From: Liolophura sinensis
Lineage: Eukaryota > Mollusca > Polyplacophora > Chitonida > Chitonidae
DNA length: 64,000 bases
Direction: 5' to 3'
Assembly (NCBI RefSeq): GCF_032854445.1
Contig: NC_088295.1
Location: 62,043,249 to 62,107,248 of the forward strand
Shown: piece by piece, positions 16,380 through 42,300 of the stretch
Numbering within the stretch: position 1 is the first letter of the stretch
Layout of the letters: the number at the start of each line of letters is the position of its first letter
The notes under the pieces: generated by a model
What the model was told of the DNA's origin: nothing
The model's input: the letters and a program-made list of their open reading frames with translations, nothing else
Database searches by the model: none
Made by a program: the position numbers and the translations under genes

Positions 16380-18835
16380 AAGCGGTGCCGGCTGTCTTTC
16401 ATACTTTTGTCCATACTGCACCCAAATGTTTACAACATAGATACATATACGTGTTAGTTGTAACCTTACTCCTCCTCTAAATATCTGCGCTTTAAATGCA
16501 AGAATAATATTGGTACTAGAATGCATTTATACCCAAAACACCAGAGATGACAAAGTAACTGGTATATCGAGTGGACCAGTCATCAGTGTACGAATATCTG
16601 ATATCTGTCCATGGTCTGCTGTCCTGGGTTTCGGACATGATGGGGAGTTCGACACCAGTGGGGAGGCGGTATATTCTTTTATATATATATTCTTTGTCCG
16701 TAGGTGGCGCTGGTGTGAAGCAAGACTACAAGCCATTGTTACGTCGAGAATGGATTGTACCGTTACATATCAGTTTCTATTGTAAGGCCGTACTGCCTTT
16801 AATGTGACGTCATCATTATCAGCTGGGAAAGGAACATTTGATGTCACTCAATGCAACAGTCTAAAGTGTGAACATGTGTGCATTTCTGCGGCGAAGGCAG
16901 TTGAGGCTACATGACGACCCTCTTCTGACATCTGCTCGAGCAGGTCAGAGCAGCACGTACTTGATCTGTATCCTTATGTTCAGGTGGAGGTAATGACGTG
17001 TTAGTCAAGTTTACACTCTTAAAACACACAAGACGCACAGCACAGAAAGTAAATCCAGATCACCGATGACAGTGTTATAGTTGGCAAAGTGCAACACGTA
17101 ACCGGTTAAATCTGGCCTCTAGTTATTCTATCTCAGGATTTTATGCATACCTGGATTATACTTCAGCGGCTTTACTGGCTGAAAACTTTTTAAGATTTTG
17201 TGATAATTATATGCTCCCAGTAATAAATGATGATTCTCTTTTTCATGTCGAGTTTCAGTAGATTCTGTTTGTGCAATTCCTACGTTGAACATTTAAGGGA
17301 TGTTCACCTTGGTTTACCACGAAAGAACATATTCAAGAGGGCTGAAAATAACTTCATGTTTTCACAGGATATTCAACCGAACTCCGTTCTAATGACATTC
17401 TGAAGCACGTTATAGTTACATTTGGACAATTCGGGCAATTGTGTCCAAGATTTGCATTCGAACTGAAGTGATATGGAACACTGATTGGATAATTCTGCCA
17501 ATCAGACATTTTAGGTTGTTAATACACTATAAATTTCTGCACTGCTATTTTGCACCTAGTTATAGGTGTGTAATCTAATGTTAAAATATGTGAGAATTTT
17601 GTCTGTGTTGGATAAAACTGAAAATTACTTGCGCGACTTCAACGTGATGACCAATTGTCATAGGTAATCGGTGAAATACCGCCTCTTGTCAACTTCCCTC
17701 AGTCAGGGTTTGATTCCAGCTGTTTATGTAAATGGATGAATACATGTAGTAGCAATTTACACTCCCCCCACCCAGCACCATGGCTTAAGCAGAATTAAGT
17801 AAAATAAAAAAAAAGTATGCAGTGATGTAAATTAGACGATTTTTGCGATTATTCGACATCACTGGTCTAGAATGACCCAAAATGCTGTGTTGTCATCACA
17901 TTTAACATACTCATTAAAACAATGCAAAGGGACCAGACTTCGGGGGTGATTAGTTTACAATTTTCATAATTTCATTTGGAAATTGTCGTAATGTTAAATG
18001 GGTAGGCGTTTCCATTTTTTCTTACTTGACTGTAAAGCAAGATACTATTTATTACTGGTGGATCTATACATGTATATTTACAATAGAAACATTTACAATT
18101 GAAAATGAAACATTTACGATGTCTACTGTAGCCTTGTCGTTGTTTTTGTCTCTCCTTATTGCAAGAATAGACGTTATATGTTCATGTAACTACCATGGGG
18201 GTCGGCATTGTAAACATTACGTCTGGAATTTTCGTGCTGGTAACGTTCAGAGGGTTTCGTGAAATTGGCCACGACCGGGCTGCGAGGTAAACAGAGGACT
18301 GGGGTATACAAAAAGAGGTCTATACAAGTACGAAAAAGGAGGACCGGCGTATATAGGACAGGACAGTAAAACACAGAAATTCGAGATTTCTGTCTGCCTG
18401 CTATGTGTAATTTAAGCGAGATAGTTCAACGGTTTTTGTCACAAATGTTTACAAGGGAAGAATAGTAATACCACCGGTTGTATATGTTGACACGTTCTGT
18501 TACAAACAATGGTGGGGAAAACCCAAACCCAGGAGAAGAAAACTTAAATATTAAACAAATACCATTCAAAAGAGTAGGCATTTCCTCGCTTGTGCATGCC
18601 ATAAAAAATTTAATGTGTAACTCATGTTGATAAATTATAAATAAGCAGGCGGGCACCACCAAACAGAAAAAAATGTGCTCTTTTCAGCCTATAGTGCCAT
18701 GTTTTTAAAGTGTCTTCTTTAATTTCTATTGATCTGCTATAAAAAAAAATCCCGTTCTGTTTTTAGAGATTTTGTTTTCACCAATACCGACGCTTGCTTC
18801 GAAGTAGTGAAAAACTTTACTGTACATGCTTGTTT

Positions 18836-19160
18836 TAGGTACCGATACTCTGAGGCTGAATTTTAGGTATCTGTACTCTAAAACTAAAATGGGGAGGTCT
18901 TGCAACAACCTGTGGATGGTCGTGGGTTTCCCCCGGGCCCTGCCCGGTTTCCTCCCACCATAATGCTAATTTCGTATCAATGAAATATTCTTGAGTACGG
19001 CGTAAAAACATCAAGTAAATAAATCTAAGACTAAAGCATATGAACAGGTACTCCAGGGTTGAAGTTTAGGAATAGGTGCTCTAAGGCTGAAATTTAGGCA
19101 TCGATACTCTAAGGCTGAAGGTTAGGTATAGGTACTCTAAGGCTAAAGTTTCTAAGAAAC
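18836..19160. repeat. 28-bp minisatellite split by a SINE (copy 1)
   Basis: Tandem units of about 28 bp with a TACTCTAAGGCTGAA core flank a plus-strand SINE family 1 fragment at 18891-19023. The same arrangement recurs at 31181-31500, so the insertion predates the duplication of this part. It is absent from copy 2, which starts further in. Confidence 0.8.
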
Positions 19161-19731
19161 GATACATCAGTCAGTTGCATTGTGTCTTATATACGTAAAA
19201 CAGCTATATGCAACACCGAGTAATATACCAGATATCCAAACCACTCGAAATACCATTTTGAGAGAGTTTTTACATGTCATAACGTCACTGAATAGTGTTT
19301 TGCTATCCAACGGAACATGGGTTGAAGCATTATATTTCAGGCAAGTACTCCCATTTGTTGCTGGTTTAATACTATCTCACTTGTGGGAAAATTTTCATAA
19401 CATGGCTAATCCAGAAAGTGAAAGTTTGTTAAATTTCGAGTTTTAGGTTTGAAACATTTCGAATAAATGAATGCATACTTAAGATGGTTATCATTTTTCC
19501 TGTCGGCACGATGTATTTATTTATTTATTTATGTGATTCCTGTTTAAGGCCGCACTTTTTCACCTATACTGTGGTGGCCAGTTTTACAGTTAACCTGGGA
19601 TATAACCATAGGTCTTCGGCAAGATACCTGCGAATTTTCCCAAACCTGGCATACAGATGTGCATGTTACACTGGTGGACCACGAACATTAGACTGCTTAT
19701 TTAAACAGCTCAGTTAGCAGATTTGTATAAG

Positions 19732-19776
19732 CACGGATTGTGTGGTAAGTAACTGTTACTTACCACACAATCCGTG
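19732..19776. repeat. Perfect 22-bp inverted repeat with 1-bp loop (copy 1 only)
   Basis: The left arm starts CACGGATTGTGTGG and the right arm ends CCACACAATCCGTG, separated by one T. Copies 2 and 3 carry only the right arm at the matching site (near 25508 and 32086). The left arm is therefore a new inverted duplication in copy 1. Confidence 0.95.
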
Positions 19777-22288
19777 TACAGCCATGATGGCGGGACGCTC
19801 AGTGCAAGTCACCCATAGAATGGATGAGGTTGACCATGAGCTGATCACGCGCTGAACCCTGTCTAACAAGCCGTTGTCATTGGTTGCTTGCTGATAGAAA
19901 CACCAATCATGTAGCTGCTTGTCGAGTTTATGACACGGAAGCTAAATATAGTCCACAGAATCTGGAAATCCCCGTTGCTTTCTTAACTGGAGACGCATTA
20001 TAAACTGGAATTCCCCTTACAAGTTTATATAGTTGCTGATTGTAATTTTTCTGTAACTCATTGAACCAAACGTGCCAAAATGTAGGTACTCCGTGCCATT
20101 GATTAAATTCACAACCTGTTTTCTCTTCAATAACAACAAAGTCGACGGTTAAAAAAAGTAGAAATTCATTAACTACTTCAGCAAGAGTAGGTAATGTTTT
20201 TGACGACGCTTAATCGCTTATCTGTTATGAATGGATTTCCAAGATAAAATTTGACGCCGAGCTTGGCCTTTTTCACCCATCCAATTAATTTTCGTTGTAA
20301 TCCGGGAGTGGATCTGGTTTCAGAAAATGTTTAAAGTGAACATAAGAAATTCTATAAAGCTTTGAAAGCCGAAAAGTTCAGCATTGAGGATATGGCACTG
20401 GCAGACAGTTCACTCTGAATAGCTGTGTTGTAGAAACCCAAGTGAATTTGGCCAAACACTAGCGCTGAAAGCGTCACGTAATAATTAGCTCCCGTCAAGA
20501 GACGTATTAGCCCTCTATTATCAGTGTGGTTTCTTATAGTGGATAGACATATCGGTGCAATAAACTGGATTTTGCGATTAGCGTACATGTTGGCAGGATA
20601 TTGCAGTAACTCTACAGGGTGAGCAGGCAAGACAGCCGCCTCGTTGAGACCCATTGCTTGAAGAAAAGTATTGTGACTTACCATTATTTTTTCTTCGCAA
20701 AGTCAGATTTATTACGAAAATATCTCGCCGAAATCTGAATGAAAGAGTCTGATACCAGTCAGAAGGTTCTTCTATGTTCGGTAATTCCCTAAAGTCGGTA
20801 CATCCAGCTGGGCCAAATGCTTACACCTATGCAGGACGATGGAGGACGAGCTGGGTGGCTAAAATACGACGCTTGTGTCCGCGAACATTGCCCTGAACGA
20901 GAGCCAAACCCTAACGAAACACAGAACAGAGCTGATACTCTTTGGATGGGTATCACGCGTTTTGTTTGTATTTTCTCATTGTCACATTGGTTAATACCGA
21001 TGGTACGGGAGAGCTGCAAGGCTTTGTGACGTCACTCTGGGTAACATGGCAAAAAGGCGTCATCAAATAAGTGGTTAGGTACTGACTCTTGTTTGCGATT
21101 TATTTTGTTAATAAACGGTGTAGAATTTTTAAAATATCTTTAGAACATTTCTGGAATAATACTTCATTAATTAAGTTAGCGTCAGTGGCTGGCTTTATGT
21201 TCACTTTTAATGATTGCTCAGCCTGGTGAAATGTCTGTCAGGGACTTTACAGAGAAGATCATGCACACATTTTATTGAAACTTTGTGCAACACGCACGGA
21301 TCCATTCAATTTTGGTGGTGATCAGAATCAGAATCGAGGTGTCGGTGGTTCAAAAGTGCAGTATTAAGCCAGGTTTAATTTTCAATATCAGTCTTAGTCA
21401 AAACTAAAGTTGATACCGGACTTGACTGCTAATACACTTTTTAACAGTTGGACTGTATTATTAACAGTTGAAACTATATGTATTAATTTTTAAGCGATCT
21501 TTCATCATTTTCCAGATGGCGTAAAGAAGATGGGCATGCAAATCTGTATGAGAATATACTGATGTTTAATCTTTAGTTATGGCCGTTTGTTCGATTTCGG
21601 TGGTTTCATTCCCCTTGGAAGGTTAACTGGACAAGTTCTAACTTGACTTGACACGACTTCAGATATGGACAGGAGAACATTATAAAAATATTAGGTTATG
21701 AAAGTACATCACAAGGCGTCGTTAATCATTATTTGCATAACTTTTCTCGTCTTCTTGTGGTGCCATTAACCTACGGCCAACATCATTTACGGAAATATTA
21801 CGAGAAATAGGATTTACAAAGTTTTGAGAAAGATACTTTCGTAATTGCGAATTTAATTGTCCTTGTGTTTATTTCGCACAGTGTGTGAGTAACTGTGTAT
21901 CCAATCCAAACAAACCTTTATTCCCTGGTAAGACAGTCCAGAACATTAAATAAAACGGAACAGCACTTATTCCAAACGCTCATATATACTGAACTCAATG
22001 AGACAGCCAGCGTAAAGCATATTTTCGCTTTAAAATTAGCACCAATCTATTTGTTTATTAATATATATATGATTGTTTTTTAATCCCATAGTCAATTTTT
22101 CACTTACACGTTGGCTGACAGTTTTACGGATGGAAGAAACCGGATTATCTGGGGTAAACCACTGGCCTATCGCATGGGATGTTACAGATATCCAAATTAT
22201 ATATTGACGTTCGAACGTCAGTCTGTGTATACGGCCCTGTGAGCTTCGTGGCCTTTTCATTGTCACCGCGTAATCGTATAGTATTGCT

Positions 22289-22409
22289 TCCGTAGGGTTT
22301 TCCCCGGGCTCTGCCCAGTTTTTTCCCCACCGTAAAGCTGGCTGTCGTCGTATCAGTGTAATATTTTTGCGTATGGCGTAAAATACCAATCAAATAAATA
22401 AATAAATTA
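22289..22409 (+). mobile_element. SINE family 1 3' end, copy 1 of triplication
   Basis: Segment with TTTTCCCCGGGCTCTGCCCA and TATGGCGTAAAATACC and an (AAAT)n tail. The same insertion is present at 28376-28495 and 34978-35099, so it predates the triplication. Confidence 0.8.
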
Positions 22410-22837
22410 ATATTTTATCATTTCTGATATTAATGCGCATGCCCAAACTTCTTGTTTCAGATCCCATACCGAATGGCGCGCTAGCATCATTATAGACCTA
22501 TCACGTTACTGTATAACCGCATAACGACAAAACATTCATGTGAACGCTATATATTCGTGTAAATTTCTTATCCGGGACACAAAAAAATGAGTAGCGCTAT
22601 GTGCCACCCAGATTGTTTCTGATGAACAGTATACAATGAAAAACTTCGGTGCCAGCACCGAAGGCCTACATACGTGTAAATTTCTTATTTTAACACGTTG
22701 ATCCAGTTTAATTATTCTCCATAAAATGTGATGACAACACAGCATTTAAGTAATTCTAGATCAGTGACGTCTTATGCTGTGTGAATAACATAACTGCATT
22801 TTCCCCCTATTATTTTGTTAAAGACATGCGAGGAAGC

Positions 22838-22861
22838 GTGTGTGTGTGTGTGTGTGTGTGT
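22838..22861. repeat. (GT)n microsatellite, copy 1 (12 units)
   Basis: The paralogous run has about 25 units in copy 2 (28924-28974) and about 10 in copy 3 (37337-37356). Confidence 0.95.
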
Positions 22862-23465
22862 TGGGGGGTGAGGGGGGAGGGGGGTAATACATTATTAAAA
22901 ATAACGAATGTCAACCAAGCGCCTAATTCTTTACTTGTATCATGGAAAACAAATGTGGTCCTATAATTTCCGACACGTCTATATTCAGCTGTCTATAAAA
23001 TCAGTCATACTCGCTTCCAAAGTTGCCTTTAGTTCTTGGCATGTAATAGCCCAAGCTCTACATCTTGATATGTTGGACGTCCATATTATTACAAGGAAAA
23101 TGCAGTTAGAATATTTTTTCTAATTCATAATGTTAATATCCATAAGCTTTGTTTCGACTTATTGCCCCGGGTGACGTAATAATTATTCAAAAGCAAGTTG
23201 CATGCTGGACAATGGGCGTGGAGAGTAATTTGTTTTACAATGGCTGCACCAACAAGCGCTTAGAACAAGTTCAACGCAATAGTATACTGTCTCTGCGAAT
23301 AGACTATATAGTTTTAATTGCCTAACACCTATCTCTAAGACGTTACTGACGTGATCATCATATACTACAAGAAAAAAATAAAGAAAAATTATTGAAAATA
23401 ATGTATTTTAGGACGTAAATTTCTCGAAAGTGTGTGAAAGTGTAAGTGTAGCTGGATTTGAACAC

Positions 23466-23532
23466 ATAGCGATCGCACTGGTGAGAGGCTACTTGAGCAT
23501 TGCGCCGCGCTGGCGTGCTCACCACCTCAACA
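23466..23532 (-). mobile_element. SINE tRNA-like head fragment (copy 1)
   Basis: On the minus strand it reads GTGAGCACGCCAGCGCGGCG followed by a B-box-like GTGTTCAAATCC. A matching piece is at 37945-38030 in copy 3; the segment is deleted in copy 2. Confidence 0.65.
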
Positions 23533-23879
23533 ACGAAAAGCACGGAGAATCGGTTTGAAGTAAGAGGTCCATTTGTGATTCGCTTATGGGCGATGGGTGA
23601 CGCAAGGTATTGTTGAAACAGTCTTTATTTCGTTGGTCTGGAAGTGCGAGGTTCGGTAGTCAACAACAAGTTTCTGCATGTGTAAGTTATGTGAATATTA
23701 ATGAAGACACAACTACCAATGAAACTTTGTTCTAGTTTGCCAAATTAAATGTTCCGTACGGAGCATTTATTGGCTATAACACAGTTTAAGTCACTTTTCT
23801 CTCATACCAGAAATCCACGTGTCTTCCGACAGAGCGTATAAAATCGATATAGGCCTATTCGAGTGTTCTGTGATCTGCT

Positions 23880-24415
23880 GAGATTTACTGTGAATACCAA
23901 AACACATAAATCAGCCACCGACACAGCTGTGATAACTCTACTGTGATAACGAATCAGTTCGAATATACAAAGACAGGAATCAGTGATCACCTGGTGAAAT
24001 TATGATTCGCCGTGAATACAAGGCCACATGCATCAGCCACCGACACAGCTGTGGTAACTCTACTGTGATAACGAATCAGTTCGAATATACAAAGATAGGA
24101 ATCAGTGACCACCTGGTGAGATAAGGATTCGCTGTGAATACAAGGCCACATGCATCAGCCACCGACACAGCTGTGGTAACTCTACTGTGATAACGAATCA
24201 GTTCGAATATACAAAGATAGGAATCAGTGACCACCTGGTGAGATAAGGATTCGCTGTGAATACAAGACCACATGAATCAGCCACCGACACAGCTGTGATA
24301 ACTCTACTGTGATAACGAATCATTTCGAATATATAAAGATAGGAATCAGTGACCACCTGGTGAGATAAGGATTCGCTGTGAATACAAGACCACATGAATC
24401 AGCCACCGACGCGAG
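23880..24415. repeat. 122-bp tandem array, copy 1 (about 4 units)
   Basis: Units contain CAGCCACCGACACAGCTGTG, recurring at 23912, 24033, 24155 and 24277, with a diverged unit after it. Minus-strand open frames offset by exactly 122 bp come from this periodicity. Confidence 0.92.
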
Positions 24416-24878
24416 ATGTGATATCTCTGATGTGACAAGCAATCACTCTGAATATAAAAACAGACAAATCAAGCACCAGTTGATGTTAGGATATTCCTAC
24501 TTCCGGGTTCACTATAAATATAAAACCCGTCTGCGTCCTCTTGTTCAAAAGTTTCAGGCATATTCAGACAACAAAACAACAAAAAGCCATGATCATATGA
24601 GTAACGGTGTATTTCGTAAACAAAATGAAAAAACTGGTCGCAAAAGAGCGATTGTAAATAAATATAGCACCTCCCCTTTGAATCACAGGGACTATATTAA
24701 TACCAATCGTTATTTTCTACAATCCTGCAAAAAATGCTGCCATCATATCTCTTACGGTATATTTTAGCGAGTGTAAGGGACAATATATTCTTACCATCAG
24801 ATCACAAACATTGTATATTATGTAAAAAAAAAAGACTTCCAAACTGAGACATAGTTAATTTGTAGTATTTCTAGTATG

Positions 24879-24951
24879 AAAATGGGCAATGGGTGACCAT
24901 CAAATAACAATTCACGAACGTCACAAGATGACCACATTGGAGGAAATGATC
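24879..24951 (-). pseudogene. Vestigial second RING half (copy 1)
   Basis: Counterpart of the degenerate RING duplicate, here in repeat copy 1 next to the RING stub. Confidence 0.7.
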
Positions 24952-24999
24952 ACCCTTGCATGAATGAAAACATTCATAGCTAAGTGTGCTAAACATTAA

Positions 25000-25049
25000 T
25001 CAATTAAATATGGCTCTCACGTAAGTCATGATCTTGGTCCGGCAAAATG
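25000..25049 (-). pseudogene. RING exon stub (end of gene C exon, copy 1)
   Basis: The last 16 or so codons and the stop of the gene C RING exon, from the FCRTKI motif onward, at the right end of repeat copy 1. It is cut where copy 2 begins. It is too short to encode a domain. Confidence 0.75.
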
Positions 25050-28000
25050 AATAGTCACTGAATAGTGTTTTGCTATCCAACGGAACATTGGTTGAAGCAT
25101 TATATTTCAGGCAAGTACTCCCATTTGTTGCTGGTTTAATACTATTTCACTGGTGGGAAAATTTTCATAACATGTCTAATCCAGAAAGTGAATGTTTGTT
25201 AAATTTCGAGTCTTAGGTTTGAAACATTTCGAATAAATGAATGCATACTTAAGATGGTTATCATTTTTCCTGTCGGCACAATGTATGTATGTATTTATTT
25301 ATGTGATTCCTGTTTAAGGCCGCACTTTTTCACCTATACTGTGGTGGCCAGATTTACAGTTAACCTGGGATATAACCATAGATCTTCGGCAAGATACCTG
25401 CGAATTTTCCCAAACCTGGCATACAGATGTGCATGTTATACTGGTGGACCACGAACATTAGACTGCTTATTTAAACAGCTTAGTTCGCAGATTTGTATAA
25501 GTGCAATTACTTACCACACAATCCGTGTACAACCATAATGGCGGAACGCTCAGTGCAAGTCACCCATAGAATGGATGAGGTTGACCATGAGCTGATCACG
25601 CGCTGAACACTGTCTAACAAGCCGTTGTCATTGGTTGCTTGCTGATAGAAACACCAATCATGTAGCTGCTTGTCGAGTTTATGACACGGAAGCTAAATAT
25701 AGTCCACAGAATCTGGAAATCCCCGTTGCTTTCTTAACTGGAGACGCATTATAAACTGGAATTCCCCTTACAAGTTTATATAGTTGCTGATTGCCGTTTT
25801 ATTTTTCTGTAACTCCTTGAACCAAACGTGCCAAAATGTAGGTACTCCGTGCCATTGATTAAATTCACAACCTGTTTTCTCTTCAATAACAACAAAGTCG
25901 ACGGTTAAAAAAAGTAGAAATTCATTAACTACTTCAGCAAGAGTAGGTAATGTTTTTGACGACGCTTAATGGCTTATCTGTTATGAATGGATTTCCAAGA
26001 TAAAATTTGACGCCGAGCTTGGCCTTTTTCACCCATCCAATTAATTTTCGTTGTAATCCGGGAGTGGATCTGGTTTCAGAAAATGTTTAAAGTGAACATA
26101 AGAAATTCTATAAAGCTTTGAAAGCCGAAAAGTTCAGCATTGAGGATATGGCACTGGCAGACAGTTCACTCTGAATAGCTGTGTTGTAGAAACCCAAGTG
26201 AATTTGGCCAAACACTAGCGCTGAAAGCGTCACGTAATAATTAGCTCCCGTCAAGAGACGTATTAGCCCTCTATTATCAGTGTGGTTTCTTATAGTGGAT
26301 AGACAGATATCGGTGCAATAAACTGGATTTTGCGATTAGCGTACATGTTGGCAGGATATTGCAGTAACTCTACAGGGTGAGCAGGCAAGACAGCCGCCTC
26401 GTTGAGACCCATTGCTTGAAGAAAAGTATTGTGACTTACCATTATTTTTTCTTCGCAAAGTCAGATTTATTACGAAAATATCTCGCTGAAATCTGAATGA
26501 AAGAGTCTGATACCAGTCAGAAGGTTCTTCTATGTTCGGTAATTCCCTAAAGTGGGTACATCCAGCTGGGCCAAATGCTTACACCTATGCAGGACGATGG
26601 AGGACGAGCTGGGTGGCTAAAATACGACGCTTGTGTCCGCGAACATTGCCCTGAACGAGAGCCAAACCCTAACGAAACACAGAACAGAGCTGATACTCTT
26701 TGGATGGGTATCACGCGTTTTGTTTGTATTTTCTCATTGTCACATTGGTTAATACCGATGGTACGGGAGAGCTGCAAGGCTTTGTGACGTCACTCTGGGT
26801 AACATGGCAAAAAGGCGTCATCAAATAAGTGGTTAGGTACTGACTCTTGTTTGCGATTTATTTTGTTAATAAACGGTGTAGAATTTTTAAAATATCTTTA
26901 GAACATTTCTGGAATAATACTTCATTAATTAAGTTAGCGTCAGTGGCTGGCTTTATGTTCACTTTTAATGATTGCTCAGCCTGGTGAAATGTCTGTCAGG
27001 GACTTTACAGAGAAGATCATGCTTACATTTTATTGAAACTTTGTGCAACACGCACGGATCCATTCAATTTTGGTGGTGATCAGAATCAGAATCGAGGTGT
27101 CAGTTGTTCAAAAGTGCAGTATTAAGCCAGGTTTAATTTTCAATATCAGTCTTAGTCAAAACTAAAGTTGATACCGGACTTGACTGCTAATACACTTTTT
27201 AACATTTGGACTGTATTATTAACAGTTGAAACTATATGTATTAATTTTTAAGCGATCTTTCATCATTGCCAGATGGTGTAAAGAAGATGGGCATGCAAAT
27301 CTGTATGAGAATATACTGATGTTTAATCTTTAGTTATGGGCGTTTGCTCGATTTCGATGGTTTCATTCCCCTTGGAAAGTTAACTGGACAAGTTCTAACT
27401 TGACTTGACACGACTTCAGATATGGACAGGAGAACATTATAAAAAATATTAGGTTATGAAAGTACATCACAAGACGTCGTTAATCATTATTTGCATAACT
27501 TTTCTCGTCTTCTTGTGGTGCCATTAACCTATGGCCGACATCATTTACGGAAAAATTACGAGAAATAGGATTTACAAAGTTTTGAGAAAGATACTTTCGT
27601 AATTGCTAATTTAATTGTCCTTGTGTTTATTTCGCACAGTGCGTGAGTAACTGTGTATCCAATCCAAACAAACCTTTATTCCCTGGTAAGACAGTCCAGA
27701 ACATTAAATAAAACGGAACAGCACTTATTCCAAACGCTCATATATACTGAACTCAATGAGACAGCCAGCGTAAAGCATATTTTCGCTTTAAAATTAGCAC
27801 CAATCTATTTGTTTATTAATATATATATGATTGTTTTTTAATCCCATAGTCAATTTTTCACTTACACGTTGGCTGACAGTTTTACGGATGGAAGAAACCG
27901 GATTATCTGGGGTAAACCACTGGCCTACCGCATGGGATGTTACAGATATCCAAATTATATATTGACGTTCGAACGTCAGTCTGTGTATACGGCCCTGTGA

Positions 28001-28921: not shown

Positions 28922-28923
<2 letters not shown>

Positions 28924-28974: not shown

Positions 28975-28975
<1 letters not shown>

Positions 28976-30647: not shown

Positions 30648-30696
30648 CACCCTTGCATGAATGAAAACATTCATAGCTAAGTGTGCTAAACATTAA

Positions 30697-30883: not shown

Positions 30884-31180
30884 ATTAAACAAATATTAAA
30901 CTAATACCATTCAAAAGAGTAGGCATTTCCTCGCTTGTGCATGCCATAAAAATTTTAATGTGTAACTCATGTTGATAAATTATAAATAAGCAGGCGGGCA
31001 CCACCAAACAGAAAAAAATGTGCTCTTTTCAGCCTATAGTGCCATGGTTTTAAAGTGTCTTCTTTAATTTCTATTGATCTGCTATAAAAAAAAATTCCCG
31101 TTCTGTTTTTAGAGATTTTGTTTTCACCAATACCGACGCTTGCTTTGAAGTAGTGAAAAACTTCACTATACATGCTTGTT

Positions 31181-31500
31181 TTAGGTACCGATACTCTAAG
31201 GCTGAAATTTAGGTATCTGTACTCTAAAACTAAAATGGGAAGGTCTGGGAACAACCTGCGGATGGTCGTGGGTTTCCCCCGGGCTGTGCCCGGTTTCCTC
31301 CCACCATAATGCTAATTTCGTATCAATGAAATATTCTTGAGTACGGCGTAAAAACATCAAATAAATAAATCTAAGACTAAAGCATATGAACAGGTACTCC
31401 AAGGTTGAAGTTTAGGAATAGGTGCTCTAAGGCTGAAATTTAGGCATCGATACTTTAAGGCTGAAGGTTAGGTATAGGTACTCTAAGGCTAAAGTTTCTA
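31181..31500. repeat. 28-bp minisatellite split by a SINE (copy 3)
   Basis: Counterpart of the copy 1 array, with the SINE at 31236-31370. Confidence 0.8.
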
Positions 31501-34500
31501 AGAAACGATACATCAGTCAGTTGCATTGTGTCCTATATACGTAAAACAGCCATATGCAACACCGAGTAATATACCAGATATCCAAACCACTCGAAATACC
31601 ATTTTGAGAGAGTTTTTACATATCATAACGTCACTGAATAGTGTTTTGCTATCCAACGGAACATGGGTTGAAGCATTATATTTCAGGCAAGTACTCCCAT
31701 TTGTTGCTGGTTTTATACTATCTCACTTTTGAGAAAATTTTCATAACATGTCTAATCCAGAAAGTGAATGTTTATTAAATTTCAAGTCTTAGGTTTGAAA
31801 CATTTCGAATAAATGAATGCATACTTAAGATGGTTATCATTTTTTTTTCTGTCCGCACGATGTATTTATTTATTTATTTATGTGATTCCTGTTTAACGTC
31901 GCACTTTTTCACCTATACTGTGGTGGCCAGTTTTACAGTTAACCCAGGATATAACCATATATCTTCGGCAAGATACCTGCGAATTTTCCCAAACCTGGCA
32001 TACAGATGTGCATGTTATACTGGTGGACCACGAACATTATACTGCTTATTTAAACAGCTCAGTTCGCAGATTTGTATAAGTGCAGTTACTTACCACACAA
32101 TCCGTGTACAGCCATAACGGCGGAACGCTCAGTGCAAGTCACCCATAGAATGGATGAGGTTGACCATGAGCTGATCACGCGCTGAACACTGTCTAACAAG
32201 CCGTTGTCATTGGTTGCTTGCTGATACAAACATTAATCATGTAGCTGCTTGTCGAGTTTATGACACGGAAGCTAAATATAGTCCACAGAATTTGGAAATC
32301 CCCGTTGCCTTCTTAACTTGATACGCATTATAAACTGGAATTCCCCTTACAAGTTTATATAGTTGCTGATTGCCGTTTTATTTTTCTGTAACTCATTGAA
32401 CCAAACGTGCCAAAATGTAGGGACTCCGTGCCATTGATTAAATTCACAACCTGTTTTCTCTTTAATAACAACAAAGTCGAGGGTTAAAAAAATAGAAATT
32501 CATTAACTACTTCAGCAAGAGTAGGTAATGTTTTTGACGACGCTTAATCGCTTATCTGTTATGAATGGATTTCCAAGATAGAATTTGACGCCGAGCTTGG
32601 CCTTTTTCACCCATCCAATTAATTTTCGTTGTAATCCGGGAGTGGATCTGGTTTCAGAAAATGTTTAAAGTGAACATAAGAAATTCTATAAAGCTTTGAA
32701 AGCCGAAAAGTTCAGCATTGAGGATATGGCACTGGCAGACAGTTCACTCTGAATAGCTGTGTTGTAGAAACCCAAGTGAATTTGGCCAAACTCTAGCGCT
32801 GAAAGCGTCACGTAATAATTAGCTCCCGTCAAGAGACGTATTAGCCCTCTATTATCAGTGTGGATTCTTATAGTGGATAGACAGATATCGGTGCAATAAA
32901 CTGGATTTTGCGATTAGCGTACATGCGTACATGTTGGCAGGATATTGCAGTAACTCTACAGGGTGAGCAGGCAAGACACCCGCCTCGTTGAGACCCATTG
33001 CTTGAAGAAAAGTATTGTGACTTACCATTATTTTTTCTTCGCAAAGTCAGATTTATTACGAAAATATCTCGCCGAAATCTGAATGAAAGAGTCTGTTACC
33101 AGTCAGAAGGTTCTTCTATGTTCGGTAATTCCCTAAAGTCGGTACATCCAGCTGGGCCAAATGCTTACACGTATGCAGGACGATGGAGGACGAGCTGGGT
33201 GGCTAAAATACGACGCTTGTGTCCGCGAAAATTGCCCTGAACGAGAGCCAAACCCTGACGAAACATCGGTCCTTTGAACACAGAACAGAGCTGATACTCT
33301 TTGGTTGGGTATCACGCGTTTTGTTTGTATTTTCTCATTGTCACATTGGTTAATATCGATGGTAAGGGAGAGCTGCAAGGTTTTGTGACGTCACTCTAGG
33401 TAACATGGCAAAAAGGCGTCATCAAATAAGTGGTTAGGTACTGACTCTTGTTTGCGATTTATTTTGTTAATAAACGGTGTAGAATTTTAAAAATATTTTT
33501 AGAACATTTCTGGAATAATACTTCATTAGTTAAGTTAGCGTCAGTGGCTGGCTTTATGTTCACTTTTAATGATTGCTCAGCCTGGTGAAATGTCTGTCAG
33601 GGACTTTACAGAGAAGGTCGTGCATACATTTTATTGAAATTTTGTGCAACACGCACGGATCCATTTAATTTTGGTGGTGATCAGAATCAGAATCGAGGTG
33701 TCAGTTGTTCAAAAGTGCAGTATTAAGCCAGGTTTAATTTTCAATATCAGTCTTAGTCAAAACTAAAGTTGATACCGGACTTGACTGCTAATACACTTTT
33801 TAACATTTGGACTGTATTATTAACAGTTGAAACTATATGTATTAATTTTTAAGCGATCTTTCATCATTGCCAGATGGCGTAAAGAAGATGGGCATGCAAA
33901 TCTGTATGAGAATATACTGATGTTTAATCTTTAGTTATGGCCGTTTGCTCGATTTCGATGGTTTCATTCCCCTTGGAAGGTTAACTGGACAAGTTCTAAC
34001 TTGACTTGACACGACTTTAGATATGGACAGGAGAACATTATAAAAAATATTAGGTTATGAAAGTACATCACAAGACGTCGTTAATCATTATTTGCATAAC
34101 TTTTCTCGTCTTCTGTGGTGCCATTAACCTATGGCCAACATCATTTACGGAAAAAATTACGAGAAATGGGATTTACAAAGTTTTGAGAAAGATACTTTCG
34201 TAATTGCTAATTTAATTGTTCTTGTGTTTATTTCGCACAGTGTGTGAGTAACTGTGTATCCAATCCAAACAAACCTATATTCCCTGGTAAGACAGTCCAG
34301 AACATTAAATAAAACGGAACAGCACTTATTCCAAACGCTCATATATACTGAACTCAATGAGACAGCCAGCGTAAAGCATACTTTCGCTTTAAAATTAGCA
34401 CCAGTCTATTTGTTTATTAATATATATATGATTGTTTTTTAATCCCATAGTCAATTTTTCACTTACACGTTGGCTGACAGTTTTACGGATGGAAGAAACC

Positions 34501-34977
34501 GGATTATCTGGGGTAAACCACTGGCCTACCGCATGGGATGTTACAGATATCCAAATTATATATTGACGTTCGAACGTCAGTCTGTGTATACGGCCCTGTG
34601 AGCTTCGTGGCCTTTTCATTGTCACCGAGGTCCCACAAACAGTGAGAGTTGGGGTGATTGGTGATGAATGTACATGTATCGTTTGCTAACGGCCAAAAAG
34701 TGTCTTTTCATCTTCTTCGGTATTAGGCTGCAAATCGCCTCTATTAATTTAAGTCGTTTTAGGCGTGATTGCATGACTGTCTGACTGGCTCAGCTGACCG
34801 AGTTTACTTGAAGGGGATTTGAATTATGCACTGACCTCTGAACTTTGAGACCTCCTTGCCTCTAACATTAAGCAAAGGGAAATTGCGTCCAGCCCGGAGG
34901 TATAGATTGTAGCCAACTTGTACATCAATATACTGTGTGGTCAGTAACTGACCAAAGTTCTTAATCGTACAGTATTT

Positions 34978-35099
34978 CTTCCGTAGGGTTTTCCCCGGGC
35001 TCTGCCCAGTTTTCCCCCACCGTAAAGCTGGCTGTCGTCGTATAAGTGTAATATTTTTTGCGTATGGCGTAAAATACCAATCAAATAAATAAATAAATT
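34978..35099 (+). mobile_element. SINE family 1 3' end, copy 3
   Basis: Paralogous copy of the insertion at 22289-22409, some 280 bp from the piggyBac insertion. Confidence 0.8.
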
Positions 35100-35384
35100 C
35101 ATATTTTATAATTTCTGATATTAATGCGCATGCCCAAACTTCTTGTTTCAGATCCCATACCGAATGGCGCGCTAGCATCATTATAGACCTATTACGTTAC
35201 TGTATAACCGTATAACGACCAAACATTCATGTGAACGCTGTATATTCGTGTAAATTTCTTATCCGGGACTCAAAAAAATGAGTAGCCCGATGTACCACCC
35301 AGATTGATCCTGATGAACAGTATGCAATGAAAAACTTCGGTGCCAGCACCGGAGGCCTACATACGTGTAAATTTCTTATTTTAA

Positions 35385-37187
35385 CCCTTTCCAGACTGAA
35401 TATATTTGCATAGATTAAAGAATTAACTGTATGCATGGAGTCTTTTTAATGCAGGAAGGCTATTATAAGCTTGCTTGCCAAAACCTATACCATTCCTGAA
35501 ACCCTGATATTAGGACTACATGACTCTGAACAGACTTCTCCAAAGGAGTGGTTTTTGGTGGTTTCCATGGAAACCAAAATCACTGATTTACTAAAAATCG
35601 CGATAAATGGGTTTTTTCTGGTTACAGGGAGGAGATAATGGTCAGATAAGTTCATATTGTTACTTTTATATTTGTGCTTCAAGTGTTTTATGAGAAAATA
35701 AAAGTATTTTTCAACCTTTTCCTATTTATCTCACACCTGAGCAGGTCATTACCGAACACTGGTTACCAAGTATCGCGACAAGGTGTCACATGTGTACATA
35801 TATCTGAAACAATGATACATGTACATACAAGTGAAATAAAGTGGTAGATACTCTACATGCATACAGTGTATAACCAGTGTATATGTAAACAAAGTAAATC
35901 AGGAAGTAAGTTGACAGGAAATTTTATTGCCATGGAAACGGAATGTACCTGAAATGGCATTGAGCCTCACAAACCATCGATAGCATGAAGATCATATTTC
36001 AAAAACTGATTTATACTTGATTTGGACTCATTACAAAGTACAGACCTTTCAGTGTTTCCAATAATCTTTGTATTTATGATAGACAGCATAACAGTTTCTG
36101 TCCTTATTCAAACAAAGGGCAACTTTACACGTGTCACAGTAATAATGTGATCTGTGTCTATCGGTATCGTAGGACTTTCCGTTGGCCACTTTTGGCTGAG
36201 CACCACTAACACAAGTATTACCACTTCTGATAATTTTCTCATTACACACTCTACAGTCACGTCTCTCTTTAGTGTAGACAGGCAGGTGTGTGCCAACATC
36301 CTGCAGCCTATGTACCTCAGTAGGATCTCCAATCGATGGCCTACCCTTTTTCTGCCGGTATGATCGGCCACCAATCAAAGACTTGGCAAGTTCCATTTTA
36401 TAGGTCAAGTATGGTCTTTTTTTCATACCAAACTTTTTACGAGTGGCAGATTCAACAACATAAGAAGCCATGTATCATGTGGTTAGCTGGGTTATATTCA
36501 TGTTGCCAGTCAGCATCATTATTGGGCTGTTCAAAATGTACTCCAACACGCCTTCGTTGTCCTCTTCCACGTCCCCTGCCACGCCCCCTGCCGCGCCCTA
36601 TGTCCGTATGGCCATTTACCTGTCCCGTACTATTCCTATTTACTCCAGTTACCTGGGTATTATCATCTGTACTGCCATCATATGAAGTGTCAGATTGCAT
36701 TTCGTAATTGCTGGAAACCTCAGAGTCAGAATCCACGGAATAGTCCGTTTCCTGATAAATAGGCTCAATGCTCACACCTGAGCACCCATTCTGCACCGGT
36801 AAGACACCTGGATTGCTCACCGGACCGTCAAATGTTGTTGTTGTACTGCCGGAATTGTCCTCCGAGTCCGATTCATCGGAGCTATAATCACTTTGTAATT
36901 AGTCACAGTCATACTCCCATTCGGAATCTAAAACCGCGTCAACAGCTTCCTGGGTATTTAGTAACAATCGCCGCGTCGCCATGTTCATGAATCAGGATGA
37001 AAATCCAGGTAAAAACAGTGAAAAGCTCGACTCAGGTGGCTGTCACACGTCTACACGGGAGCCGCCATTACTGCTAGACATTTCAATTGTGCTAACCCCC
37101 CTCTAGGGCCAATTCATTAGTGGGTCAAGTAAAGTAAACAAAACCACTTGTTTACCGGCCAAATTTGGCCGGTCCGTCTGGAAAGGG
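35385..37187 (-). mobile_element. piggyBac-type DNA transposon, internally deleted
   Basis: The element is bounded by TTAA on both sides (35381-35384 and 37188-37191). It starts CCCTTTCCAGAC and ends with the exact reverse complement (12-bp terminal inverted repeat). Copies 1 and 2 of the surrounding repeat have a single uninterrupted TTAA at this place, which proves the insertion and its ends. The interior holds remnants of a piggyBac-like transposase on the minus strand. A perfect 20-bp palindrome (ACCGGCCAAATTTGGCCGGT, 37154-37173) lies near the right end. It is non-autonomous; mobility would need transposase supplied from elsewhere. Confidence 0.93.
36049..36982 (-). pseudogene. piggyBac-like transposase remnant, N- and C-terminal pieces only
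   Basis: From an ATG at 36982 the frame encodes an acidic Ser/Asp-rich N-terminus with an in-frame TAA at 36899-36901, then a (GR)n run of arginine-glycine pairs, ending at 36452. A second frame (36471-36049) encodes the C-terminal part, ending in a Cys-rich finger with CRVC, CDTC and LC motifs and a final YHKYKDYWKH, typical of piggyBac C-termini. The central catalytic domain with its aspartates is missing, and the two parts are in different frames, so an internal deletion and a frameshift have removed activity. Confidence 0.85.
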
Positions 37188-37336
37188 TTAACACGTTGAT
37201 CCAGTTTAATTATTCTCCATAAAATGTGATGACAACACAGCATTTAAGTAATTCTAGACCAGTGACGTCTTATGCTGTGTGAATAACATAACTGCATTTT
37301 TCCCCCTATTATTTTGTTTAAGACATGCGAGGAAGC

Positions 37337-37356
37337 GTGTGTGTGTGTGTGTGTGT
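37337..37356. repeat. (GT)n microsatellite, copy 3 (10 units)
   Basis: Shortest of the three paralogous runs, 150 bp beyond the piggyBac right end. Confidence 0.95.
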
Positions 37357-37944
37357 TGGGAGGTGAGTGGGGAGGGGGTAATACATTATTTAAATAACGA
37401 ATGTCAACCAAGCGCCTAATTCTTTACTTGTATCATGGAAAACAAATGTGGTCCTATAATTTCCGACACGTCTATATTCAGCTGTCTATAAAATCAGTCA
37501 TACTCGCTTCCAAAGTTGCCTTTAGTTCTTGGCATGTAATAGCCCAAGCTCTACATCTTGATATGTTGGACGTCCATATTATTACAAGGAAAATGCAGTT
37601 AGAATATTTTTTCTAATTCATAATGTTAATCTCCATAAGCTTTGTTTCGACTTATTGCCCCGGGTGACGTAATAATTATTCAAAAGCAAGTTGCATGCTG
37701 GACAATGGGCGTGGAGGGTAATTTGTTTTACAATGGCTGCACCAACAAGCGCTTAGAACAAGTTCAACGCAATAGTATATTGTCTCTGCGTATAGACTAT
37801 ATAGTTTTAATTGCCTAACACCCATCTCTAAGACCTTACTGACGTGATCATCATATACTACAAGAAAAAAAAATAAAGAAAAATTATTGAAAATAATGTA
37901 TTTTAGGACGTAAATTTCTCGAAAGTGTGTGAAAGTGTAAGTGT

Positions 37945-38030
37945 AGCTGGATTTGAACACATAGCGATCGCATTGGTGAGAGGCTACTTGGGCATTGCGC
38001 CGCGCTGGCGTACTAACCACCTCAACAACG
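37945..38030 (-). mobile_element. SINE tRNA-like head fragment (copy 3)
   Basis: Counterpart of the copy 1 fragment at 23466-23532. Confidence 0.65.
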
Positions 38031-38374
38031 AAAAGCACGGAGAATCGGTTTGAAGTAAGAGGTCCATTTGTGATTCGCTTATGGGCGATGGGTGACGCAA
38101 GGTATTGTTGAAACAGTCTTTATTTCGTTGGTCTGGAAATGCGAGGTTCGGTAGTCAACAACAAGTCTCTGCATGTGTAAGTTATGTGAATATTAATGAA
38201 GACACACCTACCAATGAAACTTTGTTCTAGTTTGCCAAATTAAATGTTCCGTACGGAGCATTCATTGACTATAACACGGTTTAAGTCACTTTTCTCTCAT
38301 ACCAGAAATCCACGTGTCTTCCGACAGAGCGTATAAAATCGATATAGGCCTATTCGACTGTTCTGTGATCTGCT

Positions 38375-38790
38375 GAGATTTACTGTGAATACCAAAACAC
38401 ATAAATCAGCCACCGACACAGCTGTGATAACTCTACTGTGATAACGAATCAGTTCGAATATACAAAGATAGGAATCAGTGACCACCTGGTGAGATACGGA
38501 TTCGCCGTGAATACAAGGCCACATGCATCAGCCACCGACACAGCTGTGATAACTCTACTGTGATAACGAATCAGTTCGAATATACAAAGATAGAAATCAG
38601 TGACCATCTGGTGAGATACGGATTCGCTGTGAATACAAGGCCACATGCATCAGCCACCGACACAGCTGTGATAACTCTACTGTGATAACGAATCAGTTCG
38701 AATAAACAAAGATAGGAATCAGTGACCACTTGGTGAGATAAGGATTGGCTGTGAATACAAGATCACGTGAATCAGCCACTGACACGAGAT
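38375..38790. repeat. 122-bp tandem array, copy 3 (about 3 units)
   Basis: Same unit as copy 1; the array sits about 570 bp from the end of gene C. Confidence 0.92.
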
Positions 38791-39232
38791 GTGATATCTC
38801 TGATGTGACAAGCAATCACTCTGAATATAAAAACAGACAAATCAAGCACCAGTTGATGTTAGGATATTCCTACTTCCGGGTTCACTATGAATATAAAACC
38901 CGTCTACGTCCTCTTGTTCAAAAGTACCAGGCATATTCAGACAACAAAACAACACAAAGCCATGATCATATGAGTAACGGTGTATTTCGTAAACAAAATG
39001 AAAAAACTGGTCGCAAAAGAGCGATTGTAAATAAATATAGCACCTCACCTTTGAATCACAGGGACTATATTAATACCAATAGTTATTTTCTACATTCTTG
39101 CATATCTCTTACGGTATATTTTAGCGAATGTAAGGGACAATATATTCTTACCATCAGATCACAAACATTGTATATTATGTAAAAAAAAAAAATTCCAAAC
39201 TGAGACATAGTTAATTTGTAGTATTTCTAGTA

Positions 39233-39305
39233 TGAAAATGGGCAATGGGTGACCATCAAATAACAATTCACGAACGTCACAAGATGACCACATTGGAGGA
39301 AATGA
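39233..39305 (-). pseudogene. Vestigial second RING half, 3' of gene C stop (copy 3)
   Basis: About 73 bp that repeat the central part of the gene C RING exon, offset by about 165 bp, lying just after the gene C stop codon in transcript direction. The equivalent frame still reads QCGHLVT and YLMVTHCPF, but one zinc-ligand Cys has become Phe and the final Cys is lost. It is an old partial tandem duplication of the exon. Confidence 0.75.
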
Positions 39306-39355
39306 TCACCCTTGCATGAATGAAAACATTCATAGCTAAGTGTGCTAAACATTAA

Positions 39356-42300
39356 TCAATTAAATATGGCTCTCACGTAAGTCATGATCTTGGTCCGGCA
39401 AAATGGGCAATGGGTGACCATCAAATAACAATCCATGCACGTCACAAGATGACCACATGGGAGGAAAACCATGGTCACTTCTTTGTTGAGGCAAATCTTA
39501 CATTTTAAGCTTTCTTTCATGTCACGATTTTCTTGGGAGATTCTCTCCGCCATCTCGTCACCTGTAATATAGAAGAGTAGGCAGCAGGTGTAAGGAGAAA
39601 TGACGTAAGTAGCACCCAAATGAGTGTGGCTTGTGTAACCCTGCTTCCCTGATGTTTAACGTGAGAAGAAGTTTTATCAAGGTGAATGACGTCGTCTCTA
39701 CATTTTGAGGCAAAGGCCACCCAATTCTTTACCACCATCAAAATAATAAAAAATAAACTATCATGACTTCGTAGATCATTTGATTGGAAAAATACCACTA
39801 CCACGAACTTTCAGTGTATTTATTTATTTATTTGATTGGTGTTTTACGCCGCACTCAAGAATATTTCACTTATACGACGGCGGTCAGCATTAGGGTGGGT
39901 GGAAACCGGGCACAGCCCGGCTGAAACCCACGGCCATCCGCAGGTTGCTGGCAAATCTTCCAACGAACTTTCAAAGCTGAGATTGGTACAGTGGACCGAC
40001 TGATGACAGGCAATGGGATTGCTGCAATGGACCATCTGACGACAGCCAATGGGATTGCTACTGTGGGCCATCTGGCGACAGCCAATGGGATTGGTGCAGT
40101 GGACCATCTGACAACAGCCAATCAGATTGGTGCAGTGACCATCTGACGAGAGCCACTGGCATTGCTGCAGTGACCACAAATACAAAATCTCAACCCCACC
40201 AAATCCAAGTGGGTGTCATTTTTTGCATTTCACTTGGACCAATTTGATGTCCCCACAATGTATTTTTTTACTTATTTGATTGCTGTTTTACGCCATGCTC
40301 AAGAATATTTCACTTATACGACGGCAGGAAGGAGGCACATCACATGTACTCTAAGGATTTCTTCGTTGTCATATGACTGAAAAATGGTTAAGTACGACGT
40401 TAAACCCCAAGCACTCACTCACTCACATATACAACGGCGGGCGGCATTATGGTGATGTCCCCACATGTTGTATCCCAAATTCTATCTAAATCCTAAGATG
40501 CGAAGTATCCGCCAGAAGATGAGCAGCGCGTTCATGGACAAAGCTTCATAGAGATTTCTTATTCAGCCATGTTTCTCAAGAAACAAGATAAGAGCCATGT
40601 GGCGCTCTATCTTGGAGATTAGTTGGCCATGTTCACAGCTTAGCTTCCAGATTAAACCACTCTAACTCGTTACATCCACTAACCTGGAAATAGGTTCCTG
40701 TCGCCTGCGCAGTCCCCAAAGTGTCAAAGTTGTACATGTTGCAAACTTGTTATTCGTGATTTTGAAGTAATCCCTTATTATATAATATAATAAGGCGATG
40801 GATAACGTCACAACTAACACAAACATAACCGACGCACCCACTTGGACGGCGTCCGCTTTTTTTAATCATTTGAAACTCCGTTAAAAAGTAGGAAACAGCA
40901 GCTCTTCCCAAAATTGAGATCGTTTTCTTTTTCCACATTAGCTGCTTATAGCTCTTTCTGCACACGATTAAATAAGTTATATGTAAAGACTTCCTCTTTT
41001 AATAGCACAATCTTCTTGGCTTCGATCTAATTTGTATGTTTTTCCGGACGCCGCTGAGTTGGGCCGACTCTTACTGAAAATGGCGGTAGACAAAGTTTGG
41101 TTTGCTGTCAATGCGCCATTTTCATTTGTGTTCATTGTGACGTTATCGTGTTCATTATTCACGAATAACTCAGGGATCACGAATGTGAAGTTAGAATTAC
41201 TGAAGGATTAGGACAAATATGTTTGTATAGCGTGCAATGTTTACATGTTGTGATAGGACAATTGAGAAAATAGAGTTCAGGGTTAGTAAATGTAAGAGTA
41301 CAAATCTGTATTTCTGAAAGCTAAGCTGTGGGCTAATTATTATCAGGCATTGCTTAACTCCAACTAATGTTAATGAAAAAGGCAAGGTGAGACTTGTAAG
41401 CTACTAAGTCAACTTATGTAGCTATGGAAGATGAGAAATCAATAAAAAAGCACATCTAAACATACCAATGGGAAGATGAGGTTCCGTACCTCGAACCGAT
41501 TTCTCTTCGAAATCTCCTTCGTCTGAAGTCGCGCCATTTTCCTCGGCATCTTTAAGCTCAAGGCAGACACTGACTAAAAGCTTCAACGTCAACAGGGACT
41601 CATCCCATCCTACAACATCATATGGTGGAAATAAAATATACCATTCTCGTTATAGCGCGCGCGCCGCTTTATACGTTCGCTTTACATCACTGCCACCACT
41701 TGAGCTTTGGAGCCTGCGGGGCACACGTAGGATTATTTAGGCTTAACCTCATCACTATGTAATCAGAATTCATCAATAAAATTGTTTCAGATGCCGGTTG
41801 GAATAATGTTGTACATACTTTAGCAGAAGAGAATGCATATGTATCAAGTATTAATAGAAATAAACGTTGAGACTATGCTTTTGTTATTTCTGAGATTGCT
41901 TACTGCCTTATCACCCTGACACCATTAACCTTGGTGTCGTTCAAGATTTCTGTAAAAAAATTGTCTAGTGGTCGCAGTGATGTAAAGCGAATGTAAAGAG
42001 AGGAGCATGCGATGTAAGGGGAATGTAAATGCACAGGGTAACTCGTGATTGCAATTGGTTTTACCTTGTCTGACACTGACGAGACAAAGATAGTCACGTG
42101 TTACAAGATCATATGAGCACAACAACAACAAAATTCTAAACTAGATCTGATCGAAGTTTATAGCATCAGTAGATCGAATTATTGCTCGTTTTAAATCAAT
42201 CAGTTAGTAGGTCATCGTGTCATTATAGAAGGTATTCATTATAATTGCCTATGGATTAAGACTAAATTCATTTCTAAATAAGCAAACCTGTCACTCTCTA

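What the first reader, a model, noticed from the sequence alone, without database searches (positions are those of the whole stretch)
18548..39561. Tandem triplication whose breakpoint lies inside the RING exon of IAP gene C
Three long direct repeats share a common order of blocks. Copy 2 ends within the RING exon (GGGAGATT), joined to the start of copy 3 through a short ATT overlap, while copy 3 runs on into the complete gene. Each copy has its own deletions (345 bp in copy 1, about 280 bp and the first 740 bp in copy 2), so the history can be ordered. This is IAP cluster growth caught in progress by non-homologous or microhomology-mediated duplication.
Basis: partly seen in the sequence, partly recalled or inferred. 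Interest (0 to 1): 0.8.

Follow-up and report, generated by a model that had tools for sequence, protein, structure and literature searches.

The report
Tandem triplication downstream of an apoptosis-inhibitor gene
A stretch of mostly non-coding DNA behind an apoptosis-inhibitor gene, probably of a chiton, exists in three unequal head-to-tail copies that look made by error-prone repair or replication rather than ordinary recombination, and it adds a spare gene tail but no new gene.

Summary
The triplication is real: copy 1 18546-25049, copy 2 25050-30883, copy 3 30884-39542. Capped searches of the 609-Mb assembly list no other long near-identical match. The genome matches Liolophura japonica in size and scaffold count. 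One breakpoint lies 19 bp inside the RING exon of IAP gene C. 'IAP cluster growth' is not supported: the unit is the 3' flank plus the RING end, with no BIR, UBA-like or linker exon found in it. Copy 2 keeps one intact RING domain without its splice acceptor; copy 1 keeps about 15 codons. The '740 bp missing from copy 2' is one side of a second, different junction, whose other side is 137 bp missing from copy 1. Both junctions carry a short templated repeat of 11-nt period. Simple unequal crossing-over, which would repeat a junction, did not make the third copy. Outside one 1.5-kb conversion tract between copies 1 and 2, the copies are equidistant (2.4-2.7%), so both junctions formed at nearly the same time and divergence does not order the history. 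Later changes: two deletions, a piggyBac-like insertion, conversion. A new member of a known kind; open is whether one event made both junctions.

The parts
18546..25049 (+). Copy 1 of the unit: complete left end, last 137 bp absent
25050..30883 (+). Copy 2: lacks about the first 740 bp, complete right end inside the RING exon; homology to the unit starts at 25054
30884..39542 (+). Copy 3: complete unit, runs on into the rest of gene C; includes the 1.8-kb transposon
25046..25068 (+). Junction J12 (unit position 39405 joined to 19284): insert AATA, 8-mer TGAATAGT repeated with 11-nt period (25048, 25059)
30876..30909 (+). Junction J23 (unit position 39542 joined to 18546): 11-nt step ATTAAACAAAT repeated in part (ATTAAAC at 30884 and 30895)
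39359..39561 (-). RING exon of IAP gene C (coding part); acceptor AG at 39562-39563; breakpoints 39542 (J23) and 39405 (J12) both lie in it
   Evidence: (zf-C3HC4_3, 1.4e-14)
30697..30883 (-). Intact RING remnant at the right end of copy 2 (61 codons identical in protein to gene C, 2 synonymous changes), without splice acceptor
25000..25049 (-). Tail of the RING exon (about the last 15 codons and stop) at the right end of copy 1
39235..39302 (-). Decayed 68-bp RING fragment 165 bp beyond the RING core, older than the triplication; also at 30576-30643 and 24879-24946
19799..21269 (+). Conversion tract, copy 1 side (0.54% from copy 2, 2.1% from copy 3)
25550..27027 (+). Conversion tract, copy 2 side
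22266..22272 (+). Site of the 332-bp deletion private to copy 1 (2-nt filler CG)
29425..29431 (+). Site of the 278-bp deletion private to copy 2 (2-bp microhomology AT)
35381..37191 (.). piggyBac-like element, 1,803 bp between TTAA repeats, ends CCCTTT/AAAGGG, in copy 3 only; two near-complete copies at 98-99% elsewhere
23888..24460 (+). 122-bp tandem repeat in copy 1 (4.7 units; 3.2 in copy 2 at 29741-30128; 3.8 in copy 3 at 38383-38844)
44735..44854 (-). Gene C, first BIR half-exon (not found in the array)
43008..43184 (-). Gene C, second BIR half-exon (not found in the array)
42360..42470 (-). Gene C, UBA-like exon, three residues shorter than in genes A and D (not found in the array)
   Evidence: (UBA 0.093, below cut-off)
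41545..41610 (-). Gene C, core of the linker exon before RING (not found in the array)

Best explanation
This is a head-to-tail triplication of about 6-7 kb (without the transposon) of intergenic DNA: the 3' flank of IAP gene C and the end of its RING exon. It was made by microhomology or template-switch joining, as in microhomology-mediated break-induced replication or polymerase-theta end joining. A growing 3' end left the template in the RING exon twice, at unit positions 39405 and 39542. It landed several kb back (unit positions 19284 and 18546), copied about 6-12 nt, slipped back 11 nt and went on. The two junctions formed at nearly the same time. Later changes: 1.5 kb was converted between copies 1 and 2, copies 1 and 2 lost 332 and 278 bp, and a piggyBac-like element entered copy 3. 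No IAP gene was gained. Shown: copies, junction sequences, equidistance outside the tract, the tract, the insertion, and no BIR exon found. Inferred: polymerase, fork direction, and whether it was one event or two.
For: The outer ends of copies 1 and 3 pass into sequence that the other copies lack, and the two junctions join right end to left end, as a tandem duplication requires. Both junctions lack long homology and hold a short repeat of 11-nt period. The J12 8-mer and the J23 12-mer occur in the parental flanks; 0.5% and 0.09% of letter shuffles do. Substitutions outside the tract: 47, 36 and 42 private to copies 1, 2 and 3 in 3,243 columns, star p 0.48; inside 3, 5 and 28 in 1,470, scan 0 of 5,000 shuffles. 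Indels outside the tract set copies 1, 2 and 3 apart 6, 3 and 8 times, the 8 including the transposon. Long near-identical matches to three unit segments are listed only here. Only RING peptides match the array below E 0.01. The transposon has TTAA ends and two near-complete 98-99% copies elsewhere.
Against: No related chiton genome was available to show the single-copy state. Over all 4,713 shared columns copies 1 and 2 are closest (91 vs 120 and 111 differences; bootstrap 0.93; star p 0.016), so the star pattern depends on setting aside a tract chosen after seeing the data. More conversion could have evened the distances; scans for copies 1 and 2 gave p 0.29 each. The 8-mer and 12-mer were chosen after looking and include flank letters; the bare J23 insert (7 nt) is not significant (8.3% of shuffles) and the bare J12 insert (4 nt) says nothing. 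The 11-nt step at J23 could be later slippage in AT-rich DNA.
Confidence: 0.78

Rival explanations
1. Two independent tandem duplications in sequence: first the whole unit (J23), then positions 740 to end-137 inside the first copy (J12). This differs from the best explanation only in the number and spacing of events.
For: Simplest order with two events: copy 1 lacks exactly the right end and copy 2 exactly the left end of J12. Copies 1 and 2 are closest overall (bootstrap 0.93). Indels set copy 3 apart 11 times, copy 1 8 times and copy 2 3 times (transposon included).
Against: Outside the 1.5-kb tract there is no nested substitution signal (star p 0.48), and the internal branch is at most about 19% of the lineage age. 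The largest gaps shared by copies 1 and 2 (8 and 15 bp) lie inside the tract; outside it they share only gaps of 3, 1, 1 and 1 bp besides the transposon site. Two unrelated events would have to pick right ends 137 bp apart and left ends about 740 bp apart.
Confidence: 0.45
2. Unequal homologous crossing-over after one duplication made the third copy.
For: The commonest way for an existing tandem pair to grow (general knowledge).
Against: It would repeat the first junction. The two junctions differ in both breakpoints.
Confidence: 0.05
3. Assembly artefact, for example both haplotypes laid end to end.
For: The matching assembly used 14x HiFi reads averaging 8.3 kb (PMC11068029, passages seen), shorter than the array. 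Copy divergence is only about twice the heterozygosity of 1.24%.
Against: No N in the window. The junctions are single-base joins with short repeats, at different places in the two joins. Each copy has private indels. Haplotype duplication would be expected to copy gene C as well.
Confidence: 0.05
4. Functional gain: the copy 2 RING remnant serves as an alternative last exon of gene C, or as a separate small RING protein.
For: 61 codons identical in protein, two changes, both synonymous. If both lines drifted freely, no protein change would have P 0.02-0.03. A CAAG acceptor-like site in the remnant would keep phase 1, matching the end of the linker exon (read by eye). It lies downstream of gene C on the same strand.
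Against: True acceptor and first 19 bp lost. The candidate acceptor has A at -3, which is poor (general knowledge). Gene C itself is expected to be constrained; if only the remnant drifts, no protein change has P 0.15-0.17. No transcript data here.
Confidence: 0.1

Closest known systems
[quoted passage not shown]
   Same: Head-to-tail triplication without long homology; the authors model a second round of strand invasion
   Different: [quoted passage not shown] here the two junctions differ, carry 11-nt-period repeats, and stand in a reference genome at kilobase scale
Polymerase-theta-mediated / synthesis-dependent end joining (review PMC7407515, passages seen)
   Same: Short templated insertions and 1-2 bp microhomology at junctions and in the copy 2 deletion
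   Different: The germline scars named in the passages seen are deletions and small templated insertions; the polymerase was not tested here
Tandem IAP arrays in oysters (PMC8917759, passages seen)
   Same: Molluscan IAP genes in clusters attributed to tandem duplication
   Different: There IAP genes are duplicated; here only the end of one RING exon and its flank, and one search lists few BIR loci (17 matches at 10 places)

Membership tests
Tandem duplication/triplication (structural class) | Copies adjacent, same orientation, right end joined to left end, outer ends in sequence the other copies lack | tested here: met
Microhomology/template-switch amplification (MMBIR, FoSTeS) | Junctions with microhomology or short templated insertions and no long homology | tested here: met
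   1-2 bp shared, 8-mer and 12-mer found in the parental flanks; bare inserts not significant
Microhomology/template-switch amplification (MMBIR, FoSTeS) | Several switches in one event | tested here: inconclusive
   equidistant copies outside the tract fit one event or two close ones
Unequal crossing-over (NAHR) | Added copies repeat the same junction | tested here: not met
   J12 and J23 differ at both breakpoints
Polymerase-theta end joining | Dependence on polymerase theta | not testable with these tools
   needs experiment; only the scar was examined
IAP gene duplication (cluster growth) | A copied unit with at least one BIR domain | tested here: not met
   best BIR-peptide match in the array E 0.024 over 12 residues; none of 17 BIR matches in 18546-39542 (that search misses the first half-exons of genes A, C and D)
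piggyBac-like transposon (35381-37191) | TTAA target duplication and terminal inverted repeats | tested here: met
   TTAA both sides, CCCTTTCCAGAC/GTCTGGAAAGGG
piggyBac-like transposon (35381-37191) | DDE transposase domain | tested here: not met
   two frames scanned: only zf-Tnp_2 at 0.029, below cut-off; it would be a non-autonomous derivative

The most novel reading that the evidence does not exclude
One germline event made the whole triplication. A single replication or repair tract collapsed twice in the same RING exon, jumped back several kb twice, and each time landed, copied a few bases and slipped back exactly 11 nt. The array is thus a natural fossil of serial template switching with a reproducible re-start step, at an exon that had already been rearranged once before (the older 68-bp RING fragment).
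Probability: 0.3. Interest if true: 0.5.

Novelty: new member of a known kind. Interest (0 to 1): 0.33.

Why it matters
It corrects a tempting reading, that an immune gene cluster is caught growing, to partial duplication of a gene end. It gives a base-resolved animal germline example where two different junctions and near-equidistant copies point to template switching rather than unequal crossing-over, and where one conversion tract can mimic an order of events. If copy number still varies among individuals, the order and mechanism can be tested directly.

Tried and rejected
Unequal crossing-over for the third copy: rejected because the junctions differ. A gene inside the unit: the shared 132-codon frame (copy 1 form 24369-24764 scanned) has no Pfam match at E 0.01, and its copies differ mostly by protein-changing codons (8, 20 and 20 non-synonymous against 5, 5 and 2 synonymous for copies 1-2, 1-3 and 2-3), so it looks like a chance frame; one other frame of the unit, 20355-20702, also had no match, and the rest were not scanned. 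A 'short first, long second' order: it needs four segments and a later loss, and predicts copies 1 and 2 to be the most distant; they are not. Ordering by divergence: one search seemed to support copies 1 and 2 as sisters, but traced this to one tract. Selection on the copy 2 RING: not shown. Literature: (3, 3, 6, 0, 0 and 4 papers). sought Liolophura with inhibitor of apoptosis, partial gene duplication with alternative terminal exon terms. PMC8905726 was searched for 'IAP' and 'tandem duplication': 0 and 7 occurrences, nothing used. Exon identities are not used: its end-gap setting was faulty and it crashed; one search replaces it. Rows dropped before counts: searches exclude the 122-bp repeat (38370-38870), a microsatellite stretch (37320-37420) and, for triple counts, columns with a gap in any copy; one search also leaves out indels at 38340-38420 and at the ends of the alignment. 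The tract limits were chosen after seeing the windows; the scan allows for this, the star test outside the tract does not. The genome DNA searches scored only 40 of 4168, 3051 and 4499 first-look candidates. In the control half the gene C UBA peptide found only itself, so absence of a diverged UBA copy is less firmly shown.
Full report
What is there. A self-comparison of the window and a three-way alignment show three head-to-tail copies of one unit: copy 1 18546-25049, copy 2 25050-30883 and copy 3 30884-39542. The window's own 609-Mb assembly was searched with three unit segments (window 30891-32900, 32900-35384 and 37192-39542). Long near-identical matches are listed only at these three places. 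The other listed matches are dispersed repeats at 66-84% identity, apart from a few short pieces up to 94%. Only the 40 best of several thousand first-look candidates were scored in each search, so short or weaker copies may be unlisted. The assembly size (609,464,459 bases) and contig number (632) match the chiton Liolophura japonica (609.5 Mb, 632 scaffolds; PMC11068029, passages seen).

Surroundings. Three IAP-like genes lie in the window: gene A on + (about 9.1-15.4 kb), gene C on - (about 44.9-39.36 kb) and gene D on + (about 54.3-58.1 kb). Each has a BIR split over two exons, a UBA-like exon (weak by Pfam), a linker and a RING exon. Genes A and C converge, and the array fills much of the space between their 3' ends. 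None of the 17 BIR matches (28 of 28 first-look candidates scored; 10 places) lies in the array; that search does not see the first half-exons of genes A, C and D. A direct search of the array with 11 exon peptides of genes A, C and D gave four RING matches, E 1.1e-36 to 9e-7: gene C itself, the copy 2 remnant, the decayed fragment in copy 1 and the copy 1 tail. The best of the other matches is E 0.024 over 12 residues. The same peptides find known exons in the rest of the window, except that the gene C UBA peptide finds only itself. The array therefore lengthened an intergenic region and added RING remnants, not IAP genes.

Junctions. J23 joins unit position 39542, 19 bp inside the RING exon (exon start 39561), to unit position 18546. 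J12 joins unit position 39405, also in the RING exon, to unit position 19284. Each junction holds a short repeat of 11-nt period: TGAATAGT at 25048 and 25059, and ATTAAAC at 30884 and 30895. At J12 the left end could have primed on TG, copied AATAGT, and re-annealed by GT 11 nt back. At J23 it could have landed at ATTAAACAAAT and slipped back by AAAT, also 11 nt. These two paths are my inference. In letter-shuffle controls the J12 8-mer was matched in the parental flanks in 0.5% and the J23 12-mer in 0.09% of shuffles; the bare J23 insert in 8.3% and the bare J12 insert in all. The longer words were chosen after looking and include flank letters. The templated reading is thus fair for the extended words and weak for the bare inserts.

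Timing. Over 4,713 shared columns copies 1-2, 1-3 and 2-3 differ at 91, 120 and 111 sites. This seems to make copies 1 and 2 sisters (bootstrap 0.93; star p 0.016), but one search shows that it comes from one tract. In 32129-33628 (copy 3 coordinates; 19799-21269 in copy 1, 25550-27027 in copy 2) copies 1 and 2 differ by 0.54% and both differ from copy 3 by 2.1-2.2% (scan: 0 of 5,000 shuffles). Outside, 47, 36 and 42 changes are private to copies 1, 2 and 3 in 3,243 columns (star p 0.48; distances 1-2 2.6%, 1-3 2.7%, 2-3 2.4%). Indels outside the tract set copies 1, 2 and 3 apart 6, 3 and 8 times, the 8 including the transposon. The internal branch is at most about 19% of the age of each lineage (rough 95% bound). 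The two junctions therefore formed at nearly the same time, unless more conversion has evened the distances. Against a reported heterozygosity of 1.24%, the array is about twice as old as the average pair of alleles, so it may still vary in the population; this is inference.

Later changes. Copy 1 lost 332 bp with a 2-nt filler, and copy 2 lost 278 bp with 2 bp of microhomology. Without an outgroup these are called deletions because the other two copies share the sequence. Copy 3 holds a 1,803-bp element between TTAA repeats with inverted ends; the genome holds two near-complete copies at 98-99% identity. Its two longest frames on the minus strand give only a sub-threshold DDE_Tnp_1-like zinc finger, so I call it a piggyBac-like non-autonomous element; the link of TTAA and these ends to piggyBac is recalled. 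The 122-bp tandem repeat differs in unit number between the copies.

The RING remnants. Copy 2 keeps 61 codons of RING with the same protein sequence as gene C and two synonymous changes (Pfam zf-C3HC4_3 4.7e-15). It lacks the acceptor and the first 19 bp of the exon. No protein change has a chance of 0.15-0.17 if only the remnant drifts and 0.02-0.03 if both drift, so conservation of the remnant is not shown. A CAAG site in the remnant would keep the reading phase of the linker exon, but it is a poor acceptor (general knowledge). A second, decayed RING fragment of 68 bp lies 165 bp beyond the RING core in all three copies, 6-7% different from it, so it predates the array. Both junction breakpoints and the edge of this old repeat fall within about 310 bp. 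I cannot explain this clustering; J12 lies about 5 bp from the edge of the repeated block.

Verdict. The interpretation as IAP cluster growth does not. The best reading is a head-to-tail triplication by template-switch or microhomology joining, with both junctions formed at about the same time. The nearest published case that I saw, the human 20q11.21 triplication (PMC8165465, passages seen), has the same breakpoints in each amplicon and proposes repeated strand invasion; here the junctions differ.

Noticed in passing
window 44735-44854, 43008-43184, 9097-9216, 55086-55262: Gene C looks like a mosaic in its BIR: its first BIR half-exon is close to gene A (88% nt, against 62-66% in the other four exons), its second to gene D (94% nt, against 74-82% in UBA, linker and RING and 67% in the first half). 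Conversion between the clustered genes, or uneven selection, would do this.
   Followed up: partly
window 39235-39302, 30576-30643, 24879-24946: Decayed 68-bp RING fragment 165 bp beyond the RING core in every copy, older than the triplication; J12 breaks about 5 bp from the edge of its repeat block.
   Followed up: partly
window 50574-51584 (-): Open 337-residue frame of a Tc1/mariner-type transposase (DDE_3 2e-14, HTH_Tnp_Tc3_2 5.8e-9).
   Followed up: no
window 42360-42470 (-): The UBA-like exon of gene C is three residues shorter than in genes A and D, at a loop that I recall as conserved in UBA domains; the domain may be impaired.
   Followed up: no
window 7016-7225, 39823-39961, 47946-48144 and others: A short dispersed repeat occurs many times in the window on both strands at about 75-91% identity, perhaps a SINE family.
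   Followed up: no
window 39981-40176 and 59129-59320: Short tandem arrays: 36-bp units in the last intron of gene C, and 18-bp units about 1 kb beyond the RING exon of gene D.
   Followed up: no
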